Origin: Pseudomonas baltica
GTDB taxonomy: Bacteria > Pseudomonadota > Gammaproteobacteria > Pseudomonadales > Pseudomonadaceae
DNA length: 64,000 bases
NCBI RefSeq assembly: GCF_031880315.1
Contig: NZ_CP134771.1
Span: forward strand, 1,736,001-1,800,000
Reading direction: 5' to 3'
Below are positions 1,499 through 11,312 of the stretch, in pieces. The notes under the pieces were generated by a model. It saw only the letters and a list, made by a program, of their open reading frames with translations. It was not told where the DNA came from and ran no database searches. Numbering within the stretch: the stretch's first letter is position 1; the number at the start of each line of letters is the position of its first letter. A program made the translations under genes and the position numbers.

Positions 1499-2977
1499 TT
1501 AAATATTTGTGCTCGACGACGGCGTCTTGGGCCAATGAAACAAGGGGCGTGCGAGGTCCGCGTGAAAATGTGCGACATTGATTCGCAACCACGGTCCGGC
1601 CTGCGCCTGGGCGCTGAACAACGTGGCCGGAGCAAGCAGGATACCCTGGTGAAAAGCAGCCTCGATAAAGGCCGCAAGGCACGGCAGTTGTGGGTGCCTG
1701 ATCCACAGGAACATGCCATCCACTGGCGTATGAAACAGCTCCCAACCCCAGCTCTGAAGGTGCTTCTGCGCTGTGACCTGAGCGGTTTGCAGTTGCCGCC
1801 GCACGCGGCGCAGATGACGCTCGTAACTGCCGTCGGCGAGCATGGCGCTGACGAACCGCTCGCAAAACCCCGGCACCGCGACGCTGGTCAGCAATTTGAG
1901 ATCCGCCAGGGGTTGGATCACCGCCGGTGGCGCAACGATGTATCCCACCCGCAGATTGGCCGAGAGGGTCTTGGAAAAGCTGCCGATGTAGATGACCCTG
2001 TGCAGCCCATCGAGGGCGACCAGACGGCTTTGGCCAGCCGGGCAGAAATCGCCGTACACGTCGTCTTCCACTAGCAGCAGATCGTGCTCGTTGGCCAGTT
2101 GCAGCAGGCGAAATGCGCCGTGATCACTGAGCGAGGTGCCGGTGGGATTGTGCAGCCTGGAATTGAGGAAGAATGCCTTGACCCGGCCCTCCCCCAGACG
2201 TGCCGCCACCGCTGGAATATCAGGACCATCGTGACCGCGAGGGATGCCCAGGATGATAGCGCCGCGCAGCCTGAGCAGTTGCACCAGATTATTGTTGCAG
2301 GGGTCGTCGACCAGCACTCGGTCACCCGGCTCGATGTGCTGGCGAATGATCAGATCCAGCGCTTGTGTCGCTCCCAGAGTGGTGAGCAAATGATCAGGTG
2401 CCAACGCTACCCCGAGCCGGCGCTGCAGATGCGCAACGAGTTTTTGCCGCAATGGCAGATAACCGGCCGGATCGCCATAGTCGACCAGTGAACTGTGGGC
2501 AAAATTGGCCGTTCGCCGTACTACCCGCGCCAGTGCCTGGGTATCGCGCCAGCCTGCGGGGAGCCAGCCGCACCCCAGCTTGAGGCATTGGTCGTTGCCA
2601 TGGAACAACTGCCAGAATGCCTTGATGCCATGGGGGTCGAGCGGCCCTTCGGTTGCCGGCTTCGCGCATGCGGGCAAGGACACGCCCGCCGTGGCGACGA
2701 AATAGCCGAGCCCCGGCTCGACCCTGATGGTGCCTTGCGCTTCTAGCCGCTCATAAGCACTGACGACAGTATGAAAACTGATGCGCAGGCTTGCGGCCAT
2801 TTGCCGGATGGAAGGGATCTTTTGCCCGCAGACAAGGCGCCCGTCGGCGATCTCCTGGCTGAGCCGCGCCGCCAGTTGCTCGGCAGCCAACGAAGGGCGC
2901 CGGGCGACGGTCATGACCGGGCAAAGAGGGGCAGTACGCGCGGGGGGTTTTGAATGGGGCTTTCCATTGAAGTGCAC
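1499..2977 (-). CDS. MocR-type (GntR/aminotransferase) transcriptional regulator
   Basis: About 492 residues. An N-terminal GntR winged helix (roughly residues 30-110, with KIPSIRQMAASL and TVVSAYERLEAQG) is joined to a full fold-type I aminotransferase-like domain. The latter keeps the PLP lysine context SFSKTLSANLRVGY and the NPTG motif. MocR proteins use PLP or PLP-amino acid adducts as effectors and usually control a divergent neighbour. I place the start at the GTG at 2977, because a perfect AAAGGAG lies 8 bases upstream; an ATG at 3076 and one at 2914 lack such support. The divergent five-gene operon beginning at 3246 is the obvious target. The repeated CTGTTAG motifs at 3093-3145 are the likely operator. 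Its own promoter must lie in the same gap, so autoregulation is plausible. Confidence 0.9.
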   Translation of the reverse strand: MHFNGKPHSKPPARTAPLCPVMTVARRPSLAAEQLAARLSQEIADGRLVCGQKIPSIRQMAASLRISFHTVVSAYERLEAQGTIRVEPGLGYFVATAGVSLPACAKPATEGPLDPHGIKAFWQLFHGNDQCLKLGCGWLPAGWRDTQALARVVRRTANFAHSSLVDYGDPAGYLPLRQKLVAHLQRRLGVALAPDHLLTTLGATQALDLIIRQHIEPGDRVLVDDPCNNNLVQLLRLRGAIILGIPRGHDGPDIPAVAARLGEGRVKAFFLNSRLHNPTGTSLSDHGAFRLLQLANEHDLLLVEDDVYGDFCPAGQSRLVALDGLHRVIYIGSFSKTLSANLRVGYIVAPPAVIQPLADLKLLTSVAVPGFCERFVSAMLADGSYERHLRRVRRQLQTAQVTAQKHLQSWGWELFHTPVDGMFLWIRHPQLPCLAAFIEAAFHQGILLAPATLFSAQAQAGPWLRINVAHFHADLARPLFHWPKTPSSSTNI

Positions 2978-3013
2978 GAGCGAAACTCCTTTCGCATTGA
3001 CCGACCGGACCAC

Positions 3014-3147
3014 GTTAGGGGGGCACAGTACCCAGGGCAACTGCGCTATTGAGACCAAGTGTTTCGAAATCGACATGCCCCCGCCCCGCCGGGGCTGTTA
3101 GAAAAACCTATCTAACAGCCGCCAGTTTTTGCGCCCCTCTGTTAGGG
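3014..3147. promoter_or_regulatory. Divergent promoter region with candidate MocR operator repeats
   Basis: GGCTGTTAG at 3093-3101 and CTAACAGCC at 3112-3120 form a 9-base inverted repeat with a 10-base AT-rich spacer. A third copy, CTGTTAG, lies at 3139-3145 in direct orientation to the first. A shorter GTTAGGG is found at 3014-3020 and again at 3141-3147. Several half-sites in a divergent gap fit known MocR operators (for example those of GabR and PdxR, which have repeated half-sites). The assignment to the MocR protein encoded at 1499-2977 is inference from position. Confidence 0.6.
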
Positions 3148-3245
3148 AAAGCCCCCCACCTTTGACGATATTCTCCCTGCCACTTTCACGGCCTTGCCAT
3201 TGATCGGCACTGTTACTGGCCCCACAGAACAAGGACGCCCTGCTC

Positions 3246-4421
3246 ATGACCCCAGTGGAGATTCTCGCCACCTGCGCGCCTGCCGATTACCAGGATTGGC
3301 AGTGGCAACAGCGCAACACGCTGCAATCCGCCGACGATCTGCTCAAGGCGTTCCCTGGGCTGCGCGGCACTGCACAGCTGAGCAATATCGTCCAACATCT
3401 CGGCACCCGCAAAGTGGGAATTACCCCCTACTTCGCCAGCCTGATCGAGACCGATGCCTTGGGTTGCCCGTTGCCCGACGATCCGCTCTGGCGCCAAGTA
3501 GCGCCGCTGTGGCCAGCCCACACTCACAACCAGCACGTCCCCGGCAATGCCTTCGCCTACGACGGCACGGCAGAAAACTGGGAGCTGCCCGGCGAGATGG
3601 TTACCCCCATCTGCCAGCATAAATACGACAACCGGGTGCTGGTGCGTACCGCCAATATCTGCCATGCCTATTGCCAGTTCTGCTACGAGGCCCTGCGCAC
3701 GCTGGAGCGCAACAGCCAAAAACAGGCATTCAGGAAGAGCGAGTGGCAACTGACACTGGACTATCTGGTCGCCCACCCCGAGGTCGATGAAGTGATCCTC
3801 AGCGGCGGCGAGCCGTTGATGTTGTCCGATCGCCGCCTCGACGAATTGCTGGCGTCGCTACGCGCGCACCGCCCCGAGATCATCATCCGTTTGCATACGC
3901 GCGCTCTGACCTTCAACCCCTACCGCATCACCGACGAGCTGCTGGCGGTGCTTGAAAAATGGAACGTCAACGCGCTCGGCCTGCACATCAGCCATTCCCG
4001 GGAAATCAGCGAAGCCTTCATCGATGCGACCATGCGCTTGCGCAAGGCCGTACCCGTGCTGTTCGCCAACATGCCGCTGCTGGCCGGTATCAACGACAAC
4101 TACCCGCAGCTCAAAACCCTGTGCATGCGTCTCTATGGCTTGGGCATCGTGCCCCACTACCTGTACCAGTTCATGCCCTTTTCGCCGGGCGCCGAACACT
4201 TCTGCACGCCGCTGCGCAGCGGCATCGCACTGGTTGCACAGATGAAGCGGCGACTGTCGAACCTGGCGGTCCCCGAGTTCGTGCTGCCCCATCGCGAGGG
4301 CAAATACAGCGTACCGCTGGACCTCGACAAGCCTGCGGCACGCTTGCATCAGGATGAATCGGGCAATGAGTTCATGCACTTCACCAATTGGCAGGATGCC
4401 CGTTGCGTGTTCCCGCAGTGA
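3246..4421 (+). CDS. KamA-family radical-SAM, PLP-dependent 2,3-aminomutase of unknown substrate
   Basis: 391 residues. The radical-SAM iron-sulfur motif is complete: Cys139, Cys143 and Cys146 (CHAYCQFC), with the SAM-binding SGGEP at 186-190. The PLP lysine of lysine 2,3-aminomutase is conserved in position as Lys353 (HREGKYSVPL). Family members move an amino group from the alpha to the beta carbon through a 5'-deoxyadenosyl radical. The two Asp residues that hold the lysine side chain in clostridial KamA (in CDLS and VVDAPGGGGK) are replaced here by QFMPFS and FVLPHREGK. I therefore infer a substrate other than lysine. The length argues against the shorter EF-P enzyme EpmB. AAGGA precedes the ATG. 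It is the first gene of a five-gene operon with a dehydrogenase, aminotransferase, ATP-grasp enzyme and exporter. Confidence 0.85.
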   Translation: MTPVEILATCAPADYQDWQWQQRNTLQSADDLLKAFPGLRGTAQLSNIVQHLGTRKVGITPYFASLIETDALGCPLPDDPLWRQVAPLWPAHTHNQHVPGNAFAYDGTAENWELPGEMVTPICQHKYDNRVLVRTANICHAYCQFCYEALRTLERNSQKQAFRKSEWQLTLDYLVAHPEVDEVILSGGEPLMLSDRRLDELLASLRAHRPEIIIRLHTRALTFNPYRITDELLAVLEKWNVNALGLHISHSREISEAFIDATMRLRKAVPVLFANMPLLAGINDNYPQLKTLCMRLYGLGIVPHYLYQFMPFSPGAEHFCTPLRSGIALVAQMKRRLSNLAVPEFVLPHREGKYSVPLDLDKPAARLHQDESGNEFMHFTNWQDARCVFPQ

Positions 4422-4453
4422 ACCATCCTTTCGGATTTGACCGGACAGCCCCC

Positions 4454-5416
4454 ATGAAAATCATCATCCTGGATTCAGTTCTCAACGCTTACGTCACCGA
4501 GCCGGACCTCGAGTATCAGTACCTCAAGGAATACGCTGAGGTTGAGCTATATCACGTCGAAACCGTCAACCAGTTGCCGGCCAGCGCGCTGGAGTGCGAT
4601 GCGATCATTTCCTGGCATCTCGTGCCACTGGGGCGTGCTGCGCTGAGCCGCTTCACGCGCTGCAAGGCCATCGTGCGGGCGGCGGTAGGGTTCGACAACA
4701 TCGACCTCGATTACGCCCGCAGCCGTCAGATTCAGGTCGCCAACGTGCCGGACTATGGCACCGACGAAGTCGCCGATCACACGCTGGCACTGTCACTGGC
4801 GCTGCTGCGCAAGCTCAAGGCCGCCGACCGCGTGGTGCGTAGCGGCAGTTGGGACTGGCGTGATGTCGGCTCGATCCCGCGCTTGGGCGACCTGCGCGTC
4901 GGTATCGTCGGCCTTGGCCGGATCGGTGCCGCAGTTGCACAGCGCTTCCGGGCATTCGGCTGCGATATCGCCTTTCACGACCCGCACATTGGCAGTGGCT
5001 GGGAGAAAACCCTGCGGCTCAAACGCTGCGAAACCCTGCATGACCTGCTCGACTTCGCTGATCTGGTCACCTTGCATGCACCGCTGAACGCCGATACCCG
5101 CCACCTCATCAACCAGCACAGCTTGCAGCACTTGCATGGCAAGTTCCTGATCAACACCGCTCGGGGCGCATTGATCGACCCCGATGCCCTGGAAAGCGCC
5201 ATGCAACGACGACAACTGCGCGGTCTGGGACTGGACGTGCATGCCGACGAAACCCGCCTCCCGGCGGCTGTGCTGCGAGGTGAAGAGGTGTTGTGGTCAC
5301 CCCACGTCGCCTTCTATTCGGATCGCGCCTTAGGCGAGTTGCGCACCAAGGCGGCGCGATGCGTGCTGCAACTGCTGCTCAGCGGCTGGCACCGCAACCT
5401 GGTCAACCCGCACTGA
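4454..5416 (+). CDS. D-isomer-specific 2-hydroxyacid dehydrogenase (NAD-dependent)
   Basis: 320 residues, cytosolic. The Rossmann motif GLGRIG is at 153-158. The catalytic triad of the family is visible as Arg237 (NTARGALID), Glu266 (DVHADET) and His284 (SPHVAFYSD). It interconverts a 2-oxo acid and a D-2-hydroxy acid; the overall pattern is closer to the CtBP/phosphoglycerate-dehydrogenase-like branch than to lactate dehydrogenase. The start is the ATG at 4454, 32 bases after the aminomutase stop; the frame is open further upstream but overlaps the aminomutase gene. In this operon it may reduce, or supply, a 2-oxo acid intermediate shared with the aminotransferase encoded next. The substrate is not known. 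Confidence 0.88.
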   Translation: MKIIILDSVLNAYVTEPDLEYQYLKEYAEVELYHVETVNQLPASALECDAIISWHLVPLGRAALSRFTRCKAIVRAAVGFDNIDLDYARSRQIQVANVPDYGTDEVADHTLALSLALLRKLKAADRVVRSGSWDWRDVGSIPRLGDLRVGIVGLGRIGAAVAQRFRAFGCDIAFHDPHIGSGWEKTLRLKRCETLHDLLDFADLVTLHAPLNADTRHLINQHSLQHLHGKFLINTARGALIDPDALESAMQRRQLRGLGLDVHADETRLPAAVLRGEEVLWSPHVAFYSDRALGELRTKAARCVLQLLLSGWHRNLVNPH

Positions 5417-5445
5417 ATCCTGGACCACTGCACAGAGAGCCCGCC

Positions 5446-6552
5446 ATGCCCCTCGCCGCTCGGCAATTCATCGATAAAACCCTGGAGAACCCATTCCCGG
5501 GTATCCCGGCACTGGAACGCGAACTGGGACGTCCCATCATCAGCCGCCTCAGCGGCAATGAAGCCCTGCCGATCCATCCCGACCAATGGCTGCGGACCTA
5601 TCGCGAAGAGTTCCTCGACCAATGCCGCCAATACCCAGACCCCGCAGCCCATAGCCTGCGCCTGGCACTGGGTCGGCACAGAGGCATCGGTATCGACGAG
5701 GTGCTGGTGGATGCGGGTGCCGACAGCCTGATCCATCTTGCCCTGCGCACCTTCACCCGAGCCGGTGATCAGGTGCTCTGCTCGACAGGGACCTATCCCA
5801 CCTTCGAATACTTCGCCCGCGCACAGGGATTGGAGGTCAGGCTGATGCCCTACGCAGGTAAAGGTATGCAGTTGCGCAACGACCTGCCGGGGCTTTTAGC
5901 CGCTGCATGGGACATTCGCCCGAACGTGCTCTACCTCGCCAATCCGGACAATCCTACCGGGCACTACCACAACGAGCAGACCATCCAGGCCTTCGCCCAG
6001 GCGCTGCCCGAGGAGACTTTGCTGCTCCTGGACGAAGCCTACCTGGAGTTCGCCGTCGACGATCTGCACCCCGTCCGCCTCTGGCCCAATACCTTGCGCC
6101 TGCGCAGTTTTTCCAAAGCCTACGGCTTGGCCGGGCTGCGCATCGGCTATGCGATGGCACCGGTGACATTGCTTGATTATCTCGTGCAAGCGCGTATCCA
6201 TTATTCGGTCTGCGGCCTTTCCCAGTGGCTGGCCGAACAAGCCCTTGACGACAGCGCCTACAGCCTTCAGTTACGAGCGCAAACTCTCCAACTGCGAGTG
6301 CGCTTCCAGCAGCTCGCCGACGAAGCCGGGCTGACCTGCCTGCCCTGCGCCACCAACTTCGTCACCCTGTGCATGCCCAGCCCCGAGGCCGCCAACCACT
6401 TGCAGTGGGCCTTGCTCGAGTTGGGTGTCAGCGTCAGCAAGCCGGCCACGATCAATGGCCAGAGCCTGATCCGCATCACCCTGCAACCCGACATATTCGT
6501 CCCACAGATCGCGCGGTTGATCTTTGCGCGCCCCGGGAGATCACTACCATGA
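5446..6552 (+). CDS. Fold-type I aminotransferase, HisC-like
   Basis: 368 residues, PLP enzyme of the histidinol-phosphate aminotransferase-like group. Motifs are ANPDNPTG at 165-172, LLDEAYLEF at 194-202 with the PLP-ring Asp196, and the Schiff-base lysine Lys224 in SFSKAYGLAGLRIGY. Such enzymes swap an amino group between an amino acid and a 2-oxo acid. The start at 5446 lies 29 bases after the dehydrogenase stop. An earlier in-frame ATG at 5293 would lie inside the dehydrogenase gene and is rejected. The 3' end overlaps the ATP-grasp gene by ATGA, indicating translational coupling. A real hisC role is unlikely because no other histidine genes are nearby. It most likely makes or consumes an unusual amino acid in this pathway. 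Confidence 0.87.
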   Translation: MPLAARQFIDKTLENPFPGIPALERELGRPIISRLSGNEALPIHPDQWLRTYREEFLDQCRQYPDPAAHSLRLALGRHRGIGIDEVLVDAGADSLIHLALRTFTRAGDQVLCSTGTYPTFEYFARAQGLEVRLMPYAGKGMQLRNDLPGLLAAAWDIRPNVLYLANPDNPTGHYHNEQTIQAFAQALPEETLLLLDEAYLEFAVDDLHPVRLWPNTLRLRSFSKAYGLAGLRIGYAMAPVTLLDYLVQARIHYSVCGLSQWLAEQALDDSAYSLQLRAQTLQLRVRFQQLADEAGLTCLPCATNFVTLCMPSPEAANHLQWALLELGVSVSKPATINGQSLIRITLQPDIFVPQIARLIFARPGRSLP

Positions 6553-7787
6553 AGAAACTCCTGATTACCGGCGTTGGCTGCGTTGCCCTCAAGTACCTAG
6601 TGCAAGCCTTGGAGCCTTTCGGCTACCAGCCCGTGCTGCTGGCGCGCCGAGGCGCATTCTCGGAGCAGATACAACACTACCTGGATGAGCTGGAAATCCA
6701 CGAAGTCGACACCGCGTCCATCCCACAGGTCATCAACTACATCCGTGTCCATCCGGTCGCTTTCGACGGGGTAGTCGCGGTGACCAGCCTGTTCGACGAG
6801 CAATTCACTCTGGTAGAAGCCTTGGCCAAGGAATTCGACTGGGCGTACTCCGGCCCCGTGCTGGCCTGGCTGAGTCACAAGCACAGCGTGTTGTCGCTGA
6901 TTCCCGAATTCAGCCCGCCCAGCCTCAGCTTCAAGAGCCATGAATTGCGTTCGATGAATCTGCGTCGAGTCGATAACTGGGGCCCCCGGCTGGTGCTCAA
7001 GCCGGCGTGCTCATCTGGGGGGCTGGGGCTACACCATCTGGCCACCAGCGGCACCTTGAAGGCGGAATTGGCAGCTCACCTGCACCATAGCGGCTATCAC
7101 GCCGACACCGACTGGATACTGCAACAGGAAGTGAGCGGACGTCTGTTGAGTTTCGAAGGCTTCGTCGAAGCGGGATGGGTGCGCCGCCTGGGGATCTCCA
7201 GTCGCTCGCGTATCGGTTTTACCGAGGTCGCGAACAAGTACCCGGCAGACGACCACCTCAGCCAGGCCATCATCGCCCGCGGCTGGGACTGCGTAGAAAC
7301 GCTGGTCAGCCGATCCTGCTATCAGTTCGGCTATTTCCATTGCGAATTCATCCAGACCGCCACCAGCATCTATCTAGTGGATGCCAATGTCGGTCGTATC
7401 GGCGGCGCCACCGTGCTCGAACAAGTGGCCCTGGCCCACAGCATCAATCCTCGGCAGTTGCTGGCCCACGTGCTGTTATTGCCGGTGTTGCGCGGCAAAT
7501 GCCCACTGTCGCTATGCGCCAGCGCACGGCTGGCCCCGCAGAGGACGCTGGGTATCTGGTATGGCCTACCCGAGGCCGGCACCCTGGAGTGCGTGCAGCT
7601 ACCCAAGATCCGCAGCCAGCACACACAATTCGCGGTCGAAGGCAGCCAGCTGGCCACAGTGGGAACGTCGGATTACGGGTGGGTGGGCCTGCTTTGCGGC
7701 GCGGAGGAAGAGGTGCTCGCCGACATCCACTGCATCACTGTGCGGACCGAAAAAGGCACCACCGATCCTGCATTCACGCTGGACTGA
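6549..7787 (+). CDS. ATP-grasp domain protein, probable amino-acid or peptide ligase
   Basis: 412 residues. The N-terminus (KLLITGVG) is a Rossmann-like pre-ATP-grasp domain. The ATP-grasp core shows Lys151-Pro followed by the glycine-rich SSGGLG (155-160), acidic ligands in CEFI (265-268) and the Mg/ATP motif DANVGRIGG (278-286). Enzymes of this superfamily join a carboxylate to an amine through an acyl phosphate. The start ATG at 6549 overlaps the aminotransferase stop by four bases. Placed after an aminomutase and an aminotransferase and before an exporter gene, it most likely couples an unusual amino acid to a partner (dipeptide or amide formation). The partner is not deducible. It does not look like a biotin carboxylase, D-Ala ligase or PurK by context. 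Confidence 0.82.
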   Translation: MKKLLITGVGCVALKYLVQALEPFGYQPVLLARRGAFSEQIQHYLDELEIHEVDTASIPQVINYIRVHPVAFDGVVAVTSLFDEQFTLVEALAKEFDWAYSGPVLAWLSHKHSVLSLIPEFSPPSLSFKSHELRSMNLRRVDNWGPRLVLKPACSSGGLGLHHLATSGTLKAELAAHLHHSGYHADTDWILQQEVSGRLLSFEGFVEAGWVRRLGISSRSRIGFTEVANKYPADDHLSQAIIARGWDCVETLVSRSCYQFGYFHCEFIQTATSIYLVDANVGRIGGATVLEQVALAHSINPRQLLAHVLLLPVLRGKCPLSLCASARLAPQRTLGIWYGLPEAGTLECVQLPKIRSQHTQFAVEGSQLATVGTSDYGWVGLLCGAEEEVLADIHCITVRTEKGTTDPAFTLD

Positions 7788-7805
7788 AGGGCAACAGGAA
7801 GCACT

Positions 7806-8939
7806 ATGACCCTTTACATCATCCGATTTTTCACTTGGGGCGCATGGAGCATCCTCTTCACCTTTTTTGCCGTATGGCTGGCGACGTCGGCCCCCTTCAG
7901 CGCCGCCGACATTGCGATAATTGCCGGCACCGTCGCAATGACCAACCGTGCTGGCGCGCTGTTGTTCACCCGCTGGATCGGCAGATGGGATTTTCGCGCT
8001 GTGATGGTCTGCATGCAGGTGCTGTTGATGGCCGCTATCATCTGGCTGCAATGGCTGCACCTGCATCAGGTATATTCGCTAGCGGCCTGGCTGCTGGGCG
8101 TCGCGTTGTTCGGCATCGCCAACTCGGTATCGACCCTGACGCAACTGACCTTCATCGCCAGCGGTCATGCCGAAGACGACACGGTCACGGCGTTTTCCAA
8201 GGAAAACGTCGCGCTCAACCTGAGTGCCGGGATCACTCCCTACCTGTCGGCCCTGGTGCTTGCCCACTTACCGGACTGGTATTTGGCGTTCGCCTTGCTG
8301 TACTGCCTGCCCACTGTCGCACTTTGTATGCGGATCACTTGCGCGCAGCAGCAGCCACTCACCTGCAATGAACCGCAGGCACGAAGCCCGAATGGCCAAA
8401 GCCGTGTGCAATTTCTGGCCATCAACTTTTTGTCGTTCTTTGCCTTCGCGCAGTTTTACAACGTGTTTCCGTTCTATGCCGAAGACAGCCTGGGGGCGGA
8501 AAAGATCGGGCTGTTCTTCGCTGCCAGCAGCGTATTGATCGTCATCCTGCAGATCCCCCTGACCCGCCTGTGTGCCCGGCTTTACCGCCGCGACTTGATT
8601 ACCGCGGCCAACCTGGCGTTGGCCATCGGGGTGTATGCATTGCTGTTCGCCACGCAAAAAATGACCGCGATGGTCGCTGCCATCCTGTTGCTGACCCTCG
8701 CCGAGATGATCTTCGGGCCGCTGTACCAGTCGATGTCGATCCAGCTGTTCCCTGGTCGCCCGGCCTTCGCCATGGCGGTACTGACCTTCACCTGGGCGCT
8801 GGCCGAGACCGCCGCCACCACCTTGGGGGTGTACATGGTCGCGCAGGGCCATGCCGCCGCCCTGTTCACCCTGGCTGCGGTGGCTGCTGCGCTGGTGGTA
8901 GCAATCGTGTGGGGCCGAGGAGGTTACTCGACCGCTTGA
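7806..8939 (+). CDS. MFS transporter, likely product exporter of the aminomutase operon
   Basis: 377 residues with about 12 hydrophobic segments spread along the whole length and few charged loops, the pattern of a Major Facilitator Superfamily permease. A conserved charged loop (TRWIGRWDFR) follows the second segment. The start ATG at 7806 has AGGAAG 6 bases upstream and lies 18 bases after the ATP-grasp stop, so it is the last gene of the operon. By position it probably exports the pathway product or protects the producer; uptake is an alternative. Its last 16 bases overlap the end of the convergent lipoprotein gene (8924). Confidence 0.87.
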   Translation: MTLYIIRFFTWGAWSILFTFFAVWLATSAPFSAADIAIIAGTVAMTNRAGALLFTRWIGRWDFRAVMVCMQVLLMAAIIWLQWLHLHQVYSLAAWLLGVALFGIANSVSTLTQLTFIASGHAEDDTVTAFSKENVALNLSAGITPYLSALVLAHLPDWYLAFALLYCLPTVALCMRITCAQQQPLTCNEPQARSPNGQSRVQFLAINFLSFFAFAQFYNVFPFYAEDSLGAEKIGLFFAASSVLIVILQIPLTRLCARLYRRDLITAANLALAIGVYALLFATQKMTAMVAAILLLTLAEMIFGPLYQSMSIQLFPGRPAFAMAVLTFTWALAETAATTLGVYMVAQGHAAALFTLAAVAAALVVAIVWGRGGYSTA

Positions 8940-11235: not shown

Positions 11236-11312
11236 TGGTAGGCGCGATTGGACTCGAACCAACGACCCCCACCATGTCAAGGTGGTGCTCTAACCAACTG
11301 AGCTACGTGCCT
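11236..11312 (-). tRNA. tRNA-Val (anticodon GAC), CCA encoded
   Basis: The reverse strand folds as a cloverleaf: D-arm GCTCAGTTGGTTAGAGC, anticodon stem CCACC/GGTGG with loop TTGACAT giving anticodon GAC, T-arm with TTCGAGT, and a 3' CCA encoded in the DNA. It reads GTC/GTT valine codons. The acceptor stem AGGCACG/CGCGCCT has one mismatch, A5 opposite C68; all other pairs are regular. Confidence 0.95.

What the first reader, a model, noticed from the sequence alone, without database searches (positions are those of the whole stretch)
1499..8939. Uncharacterised MocR-controlled cluster: aminomutase, dehydrogenase, aminotransferase, ATP-grasp ligase, exporter
Seen: five rightward genes with gaps of 32, 29, -4 and 18 bases, divergent from a MocR gene. 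Known: KamA-family enzymes make beta-amino acids, ATP-grasp enzymes form amide or peptide bonds, MFS proteins export, MocR regulators sense PLP adducts or amino acids. Inference: the set makes and exports a small compound containing a beta- or hydroxy-amino acid, perhaps an antimetabolite. I cannot match it to a described Pseudomonas pathway (not the usual toxoflavin, mangotoxin, AMB or FVG gene sets).
Basis: partly seen in the sequence, partly recalled or inferred. Interest (0 to 1): 0.85.

Follow-up and report, generated by a model that had tools for sequence, protein, structure and literature searches.

The report
MocR-controlled aminomutase and dipeptide-ligase operon
A compact, rare and patchily distributed Pseudomonas operon carries enzymes that look set up to rearrange an amino acid, link it into a small peptide-like compound and export it; much the same set of functions recurs with unrelated enzymes in another genome, which makes the pathway testable although its product is unknown.

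Summary
In detail: a MocR gene diverges from five tightly packed genes with the stated gaps: a divergent lysine-2,3-aminomutase-like radical SAM protein (KamA), a D-2-hydroxyacid dehydrogenase (DHDH), a HisC-like aminotransferase (AT), an ATP-grasp protein and an MFS protein. Of 57 KamA-bearing loci, 6 have all six genes and 21 have KamA+DHDH+AT, with differing partner genes. Close DHDH occurs in 7 of 398 genomes of the genus, always beside this KamA. A candidate MocR operator, CTGTTAG-N10-CTAACAG, precedes both ATP-grasp/MFS and AzlCD versions. In one genome a homologous ATP-grasp and MFS sit with a phenylalanine 2,3-aminomutase, a GlcD-like FAD dehydrogenase and a HisC-like AT: two unrelated enzymes of similar inferred function. 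I read it as a mini-cluster for an aminomutase-derived amino acid that is ligated and exported. Substrate and product are unknown; residues that bind lysine in the known enzyme are replaced. Other loci with this KamA have the gene order of pboFGHI from the phaseolotoxin-linked Pbo cluster. Eight searches of open-licence papers found no description of this gene set. New variant of a known kind.

The parts
1499..3076 (-). MocR-type regulator (GntR DNA-binding domain + aminotransferase-like domain); likely true start near 2914
   Evidence: Pfam GntR and Aminotran_1_2; homologues 54-100% identical, divergent from KamA, in 12 of 13 group A and B loci; no match in L004, which has 2.6 kb upstream of KamA
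3095..3118 (.). Candidate MocR operator (inference), inverted repeat CTGTTAG-N10-CTAACAG
   Evidence: Only exact match in the 6.6 Mb genome; at most 1 mismatch of 14 in 10 of 12 MocR-KamA regions (the window and 11 loci; near-copy L001 left out), 0 of 200 shuffles reaching it in each of the 10; L003 and L008 do not match
3139..3145 (+). Third half-site CTGTTAG, 44 bases after the first
   Evidence: Exact at +44/45 in window, L002 and L053; two mismatches at +44/45 in L005, L009, L006, L050, L054; not seen there in L007, L010
3246..4421 (+). KamA-like radical SAM/PLP protein, putative 2,3-aminomutase of unknown substrate (P0001)
4454..5416 (+). NAD-type D-2-hydroxyacid dehydrogenase (P0002)
   Evidence: PF00389, PF02826; close homologue (E <= 1e-75) in 7 of 398 genomes of the genus, all beside the KamA gene
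5446..6552 (+). HisC-like PLP aminotransferase (P0003)
   Evidence: PF00155; best NCBIfam PRK08153 (247.2/510) and hisC (194.6/276.55), both below cut-off
6549..7787 (+). ATP-grasp protein, putative amino-acid (dipeptide) ligase (P0004)
7806..8939 (+). MFS transporter, putative exporter (P0005)
   Evidence: PF07690; 32% identity over 354 columns to the MFS next to the G047 ATP-grasp

Best explanation
The operon is a MocR-controlled mini biosynthetic cluster. Inferred steps: the KamA-like radical SAM/PLP enzyme moves the alpha-amino group of a neutral amino acid to the beta carbon; the dehydrogenase oxidises a D-2-hydroxy acid to a 2-keto acid and the HisC-like aminotransferase aminates it; the ATP-grasp ligase joins the resulting amino acid to a partner, probably another amino acid; the MFS protein exports the product; MocR senses an amino compound through PLP and binds CTGTTAG-N10-CTAACAG between the divergent genes. 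Most likely (about 0.4) aminomutase, dehydrogenase and aminotransferase act in that order on one carbon skeleton, giving a 2,3-diamino acid, which needs an alpha-hydroxylation that this operon does not encode. Shown: gene families, folds of KamA and the ATP-grasp, co-occurrence, the conserved repeat, and a second cluster with a different aminomutase and a different dehydrogenase type. Inferred: substrates, order, product, export, regulation.
For: Full set in 6 of 57 loci, KamA+DHDH+AT in 21 of 57, DHDH and AT never apart; fixed gene order within groups. Trees of the three proteins fit the same three groups. Close DHDH in 7 of 398 genomes, all within 2.3 kb of KamA. KAM fold over most of the length; L-amino acid ligase as best VIA-align match of the ATP-grasp. 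G047: homologous ATP-grasp and MFS beside a protein above the cut-off of TIGR04475 phenylalanine aminomutase (878.9 against 800), a GlcD-like FAD protein, a HisC-like aminotransferase and a TauD-like dioxygenase. Repeat conserved in groups A and B.
Confidence: 0.6

Rival explanations
1. Reverse order: dehydrogenase and aminotransferase first build a non-protein alpha-amino acid from a D-2-hydroxy acid of metabolism, KamA then turns it into the beta-amino acid, which is ligated (here) or exported free by AzlCD (group B).
For: Needs no missing enzyme; in group B loci L006 and L008 only KamA, AT, DHDH, AzlC, AzlD and MocR were matched (no methyltransferase match), enough for this route.
Against: KamA stands without DHDH and AT in 33 group D loci, so its substrate is available there without them, unless the substrates differ between groups.
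Confidence: 0.25
2. Two building blocks: KamA makes a beta-amino acid, AT and DHDH make a separate alpha-amino acid or 2-hydroxy acid, and the ligase joins the two.
For: An ATP-grasp protein whose model is closest to an L-amino acid ligase by VIA-align.
Against: Seven group B loci keep all three enzymes with AzlCD and with no match to either ATP-grasp query; a single exported amino acid fits these better.
Confidence: 0.2
3. Catabolic or detoxifying operon: the enzymes break down or modify an external amino compound, the MFS protein imports it, MocR induces.
For: MocR regulators control catabolic genes in several known cases (recalled); the whole set is one short operon.
Against: A ligase-like ATP-grasp, AzlCD in group B (families from L007; presence) and, in actinobacterial relatives, MetK, a haem-oxygenase-like protein and in 3 of 8 a GCS2 ligase point to synthesis rather than breakdown.
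Confidence: 0.12

Closest known systems
Pbo cluster, pboFGHI, of Pseudomonas syringae pv. phaseolicola (PMC8473136; outline with abstract, section 2.5 and passages incl. the gene table seen)
   Same: KamA-like gene followed by an ATP-grasp L-amino acid ligase-like gene, a 2OG-Fe dioxygenase and an MFS gene, as in 32 of 33 group D loci (order), whose KamA is a relative of the window's.
   Different: The window has DHDH and AT and no 2OG dioxygenase; its ATP-grasp and MFS show no BLASTP likeness to those of group D locus L022. PboF itself was not compared by sequence.
Lysine 2,3-aminomutase (KamA/AblA, PDB 2a5h)
   Different: R134, D293 and D330 align with E148, P311 and P348; below all family cut-offs.
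L-amino acid ligases (3vot; also YwfE/BacD, RizA)
   Different: No Pfam, NCBIfam or PDB sequence match; Foldseek ranks biotin carboxylases higher; substrates unknown.
Mangotoxin mbo cluster (PMC13185094; outline with abstract and first of six text parts seen)
   Same: Small Pseudomonas cluster that builds a short peptide with ATP-grasp ligases.
   Different: MboA is a haem-oxygenase-like oxidase, MboC and MboD are ATP-grasp ligases, MboE an arginine deiminase; no PF14518 protein is in this operon, and none of MboA-E is described there as an aminomutase (MboF not seen).
   Same: Homologous ATP-grasp and MFS, a HisC-like aminotransferase, an aminomutase and a GlcD-like (D-2-hydroxyacid type, inferred) dehydrogenase.
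   Different: Aminomutase is of the MIO type, dehydrogenase is an FAD protein, plus TauD-like dioxygenase, AlaXM-like protein and an unassigned ORF; no MocR.

Membership tests
Lysine 2,3-aminomutase (KamA) superfamily | Radical SAM CX3CX2C motif and KAM fold | tested here: met
Lysine 2,3-aminomutase (KamA) superfamily | PLP-binding lysine | tested here: inconclusive
   K353 invariant in 50 of 50, but the phmmer alignment puts it two residues from K337
Lysine 2,3-aminomutase (substrate lysine) | R134, D293, D330 that bind lysine (roles recalled) | tested here: not met
   Aligned residues E148, P311, P348; E148 and P311 invariant, P348 nearly invariant
Curated KamA-family, AblA, AblA-like, EpmB, Glu- and Arg-2,3-aminomutase models | Score above NCBIfam cut-off | tested here: not met
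   186.1/199.2, 176.8/525.4, 164.6/396.25, 170.3/369.3, 165.1/650, 163.5/600
ATP-grasp superfamily | ATP-grasp fold | tested here: met
   all leading matches are ATP-grasp enzymes
ATP-grasp L-amino acid ligase | Closest to the ligase subgroup | tested here: inconclusive
ATP-grasp L-amino acid ligase | Ligates two amino acids with ATP | not testable with these tools
   Needs enzyme assay
MocR regulators | GntR winged helix plus aminotransferase-like domain | tested here: met
   PF00392 65-127, PF00155 164-504
Pbo-type set (pboFGHI) | KamA, ATP-grasp, 2OG-Fe dioxygenase, MFS in order | tested here: not met
   No PF10014 gene in the operon; ligase and MFS not alike to those of L022
Mangotoxin (mbo) cluster | Haem-oxygenase-like oxidase and two ATP-grasp ligases | tested here: not met
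   No PF14518 among the six proteins and one ATP-grasp only
AMB, FVG and toxoflavin clusters | Their gene sets | not tested

The most novel reading that the evidence does not exclude
The KamA-like protein is a radical SAM 2,3-aminomutase for a neutral, perhaps aromatic, amino acid (a reaction that I recall only from MIO enzymes for Phe and Tyr), and with dehydrogenase and aminotransferase it forms a new route to 2,3-diamino acids that bacteria have assembled at least twice, from partly non-homologous enzymes.
Probability: 0.2. Interest if true: 0.8.

Novelty: new variant of a known kind. Interest (0 to 1): 0.5.

Why it matters
It marks out a subfamily of KamA-like enzymes with an unusual active site, found in at least four kinds of small gene sets in Proteobacteria and Actinobacteria. 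Finding its substrate would tell what these sets make, and may help explain the unknown product of the Pbo cluster, two of whose operons are essential for phaseolotoxin synthesis (PMC8473136, abstract). The G047 comparison is a useful handle: two partly unrelated enzyme sets that appear to do similar jobs narrow the chemistry.

Tried and rejected
Literature: eight searches (open-licence PMC library only) listed no paper on this five-gene set; one search listed none at all. Only passages were seen of PMC11794875 (azetidine-carboxylate synthases, considered for the methyltransferase-like gene of group B and not pursued) and of PMC11278893 (phaseolotoxin review). Antiphage function: the only PADLOC match is a weak match of KamA to viperins (E 2.3e-05); rejected. 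Second operator-like site of the genome (one mismatch): lies 25 bases inside an ORF not examined further (L100 4918-5526); about one such site is expected by my own estimate (no call), so taken as chance. The repeat also forms a hairpin read as terminator-like (3093-3120; 3 such sites found in the region against 4.7 expected); its fixed place between divergent genes favours an operator, but this is inference. Base composition gives no sign of recent transfer: G+C 0.605-0.623 in the operon, 0.594-0.673 around it. Neighbours of three group A loci (F48, F49, F52) look by eye like a sirtuin, a short HTH protein and an aldehyde dehydrogenase, not a hydroxylase. A serine-to-isoserine shift would remove the need for a hydroxylase, but nothing supports it. 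A Pantoea plasmid locus (L107) has a 25% identical ATP-grasp with TauD, MFS and a tRNA-ligase-related gene: too distant to use.

Limits: the genus searches score only the best few candidates per genome and use different E-value limits (1e-60, 1e-20, 1e-75). The 57 loci come from six short peptide patterns of P0001, so distant relatives are missed and near relatives inflate counts. Families of the partner genes were tested on one member each (L007, L022, L052). Gene calls were rough; counts are. In three of the 33 group D loci (L039, L048, L049) the MFS match is only 27-28% identical, and L048 has another order. L046 ends just after its KamA gene and could not be typed; L056 matches only the dioxygenase query and L057 (a partial 34% KamA match) none. 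Of the 32 control loci, L046 is untyped and for L040 the stretch taken is not upstream of KamA. Flanks of groups A and B were not scanned for oxygenases.

Full report

Does the set recur? A scan of species genomes gave 57 loci. By tblastn within 8 kb of KamA: 6 loci have MocR, KamA, DHDH, AT, ATP-grasp and MFS (group A); 7 have KamA, DHDH, AT, AzlC and AzlD (group B; 6 of 7 with MocR, 5 of 7 with a methyltransferase-like gene); 8, seven from Streptomyces and one actinomycete MAG, have KamA, DHDH, AT, a haem-oxygenase-like protein and MetK (group C; 5 of 8 with an alanine-racemase-like gene, 3 of 8 with GCS2); 33 have KamA, another ATP-grasp, a PF10014 dioxygenase and another MFS (group D); 3 (L046, L056, L057) fit none. 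DHDH and AT occur together in 21 loci and never apart. Gene order is the same in 6 of 6 (A), 6 of 7 (B, all but L004), 8 of 8 (C) and 32 of 33 (D, all but L048). Families of the partner genes were read on one member each. Trees of KamA, DHDH and AT for groups A-C each need only the minimum of two group changes, though the split of A from B is weakly or not supported in some trees. Of 398 genomes of the genus, 23 have the KamA protein, 7 a close DHDH, all among the 23 and within 2.3 kb of KamA, and 6 the ATP-grasp, 5 of them among the 23. In three genomes that carry the set, the cluster DHDH (43-56% identical over nearly its full length) stands well above the other dehydrogenases there (31-40% over shorter stretches or with much weaker E-values); two group D genomes in the same call had no match at E 1e-30. 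Across a phylum sample 4 of 398 genomes have KamA, the window's own included. The set is rare, patchy and kept together.

A second front end. The sixth genome with the ATP-grasp (G047) has no KamA match at E 1e-60. Its locus (L095) holds, on one strand, a TauD-like dioxygenase, a MIO protein, a HisC-like aminotransferase, an AlaXM-like protein, an unassigned ORF, a GlcD-like FAD protein, the ATP-grasp and an MFS gene. The ATP-grasp is 35% identical over 416 columns and the MFS 32% over 354 to the window proteins; the aminotransferase 30% over 279. The MIO protein passes the curated cut-off for phenylalanine aminomutase, D-beta-phenylalanine forming (878.9 against 800), nearest solved structure AdmH; the other seven pass no NCBIfam cut-off, so that the GlcD-like protein oxidises a D-2-hydroxy acid is an inference from its family. 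With the same kind of ligase and exporter, an aminomutase, a dehydrogenase of D-2-hydroxyacid type and a HisC-like aminotransferase thus come together again, the first two from families unrelated to the window's. This is the strongest evidence for the functional reading, but it is one genome, and none of 56 other relatives searched had this ATP-grasp at E 1e-20.

Regulation. CTGTTAG-N10-CTAACAG lies at 3095-3118, with a third CTGTTAG at 3139; it is the only exact match in the genome and the only match with up to two mismatches in the window (0.05 expected). Of 12 regions between MocR and KamA (the window and 11 loci; near-copy L001 left out), 7 match exactly and 3 with one mismatch, with 0 of 200 shuffles reaching this in each; L003 (5 mismatches) and L008 (6) do not match. 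Several of these loci are close relatives, so the independent lineages are fewer, about seven by my count. Of 32 control stretches, nearly all upstream of group D KamA genes, none is under 4 mismatches. The repeat is shared by groups A and B although their exporters differ, which suggests a common signal. Binding by MocR is untested.

How it likely works. The enzymes point to an amino acid whose amino group is moved or doubled, then, in group A, a ligation and MFS export, and in group B export by AzlCD without a matched ligase. Three orders are open. In the diamino route the beta-amino acid is hydroxylated at the alpha carbon, oxidised by DHDH and aminated by AT; G047 has a dioxygenase and group C a haem-oxygenase-like protein that might hydroxylate, but no such gene was seen in groups A and B. 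In the reverse route DHDH and AT come first; nothing is missing, but group D has KamA without them. In the two-block route the ligase joins separate products, which group B does not fit well. I lean to the diamino route (about 0.4), without proof.

Known relatives. The gene table of PMC8473136 lists pboF (lysine 2,3-aminomutase-like), pboG (L-amino acid ligase-like), pboH (2OG-Fe dioxygenase, isoleucine hydroxylase-like) and pboI (MFS), the order of group D; the authors suggest that the Pbo cluster makes secondary metabolites that could take part in the regulation of phaseolotoxin synthesis (abstract). The window operon shares only the KamA subfamily with this kind of set: ligase and MFS are not alike to those of L022, and PboF itself was not compared. 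The mangotoxin cluster (PMC13185094, abstract and first part read) shows that a small Pseudomonas cluster with ATP-grasp ligases and an amino acid oxidase can make a toxic tripeptide, a precedent in kind. Eight literature searches found no account of this gene set; the library holds open-licence papers only.

Verdict. The finding is real and conserved, its general reading is plausible and now better supported, and its product is unknown. It is a new variant of a known kind: a small ATP-grasp cluster with an uncharacterised KamA subfamily.

Noticed in passing
L095 7729-17094 (G047:C33): A cluster of phenylalanine aminomutase (TIGR04475 above cut-off), TauD-like dioxygenase, GlcD-like FAD protein, HisC-like aminotransferase, AlaXM-like protein, ATP-grasp and MFS; product unknown.
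   Followed up: partly
L011-L014, L016-L018, L052: Actinobacterial sets DHDH, KamA, haem-oxygenase-like PF14518 protein, AT, MetK, with an alanine-racemase-like gene in 5 of 8 and GCS2 in 3 of 8; L016 also has two ORFs that read like ATP-grasp ligases (by eye).
   Followed up: partly
L053 9941-11104: The KamA gene of the Pseudomonas japonica locus reads as two ORFs, a break in the strain's gene or in the assembly.
   Followed up: no
L107 7004-12135 (Pantoea sp. JZ29 plasmid): tRNA-ligase-related gene, TauD-like dioxygenase, ATP-grasp 25% identical to the window's, MFS and Asp/Glu racemase in a row; a flanking gene is annotated as a YopT-type cysteine protease.
   Followed up: no
L042 5642-6880: A Xenorhabdus group D locus has, on the other strand, an ORF 26% identical to the window's ATP-grasp.
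   Followed up: no
window 11239-11312: tRNA gene on the minus strand, the only Rfam match in the window at gathering score.
   Followed up: no
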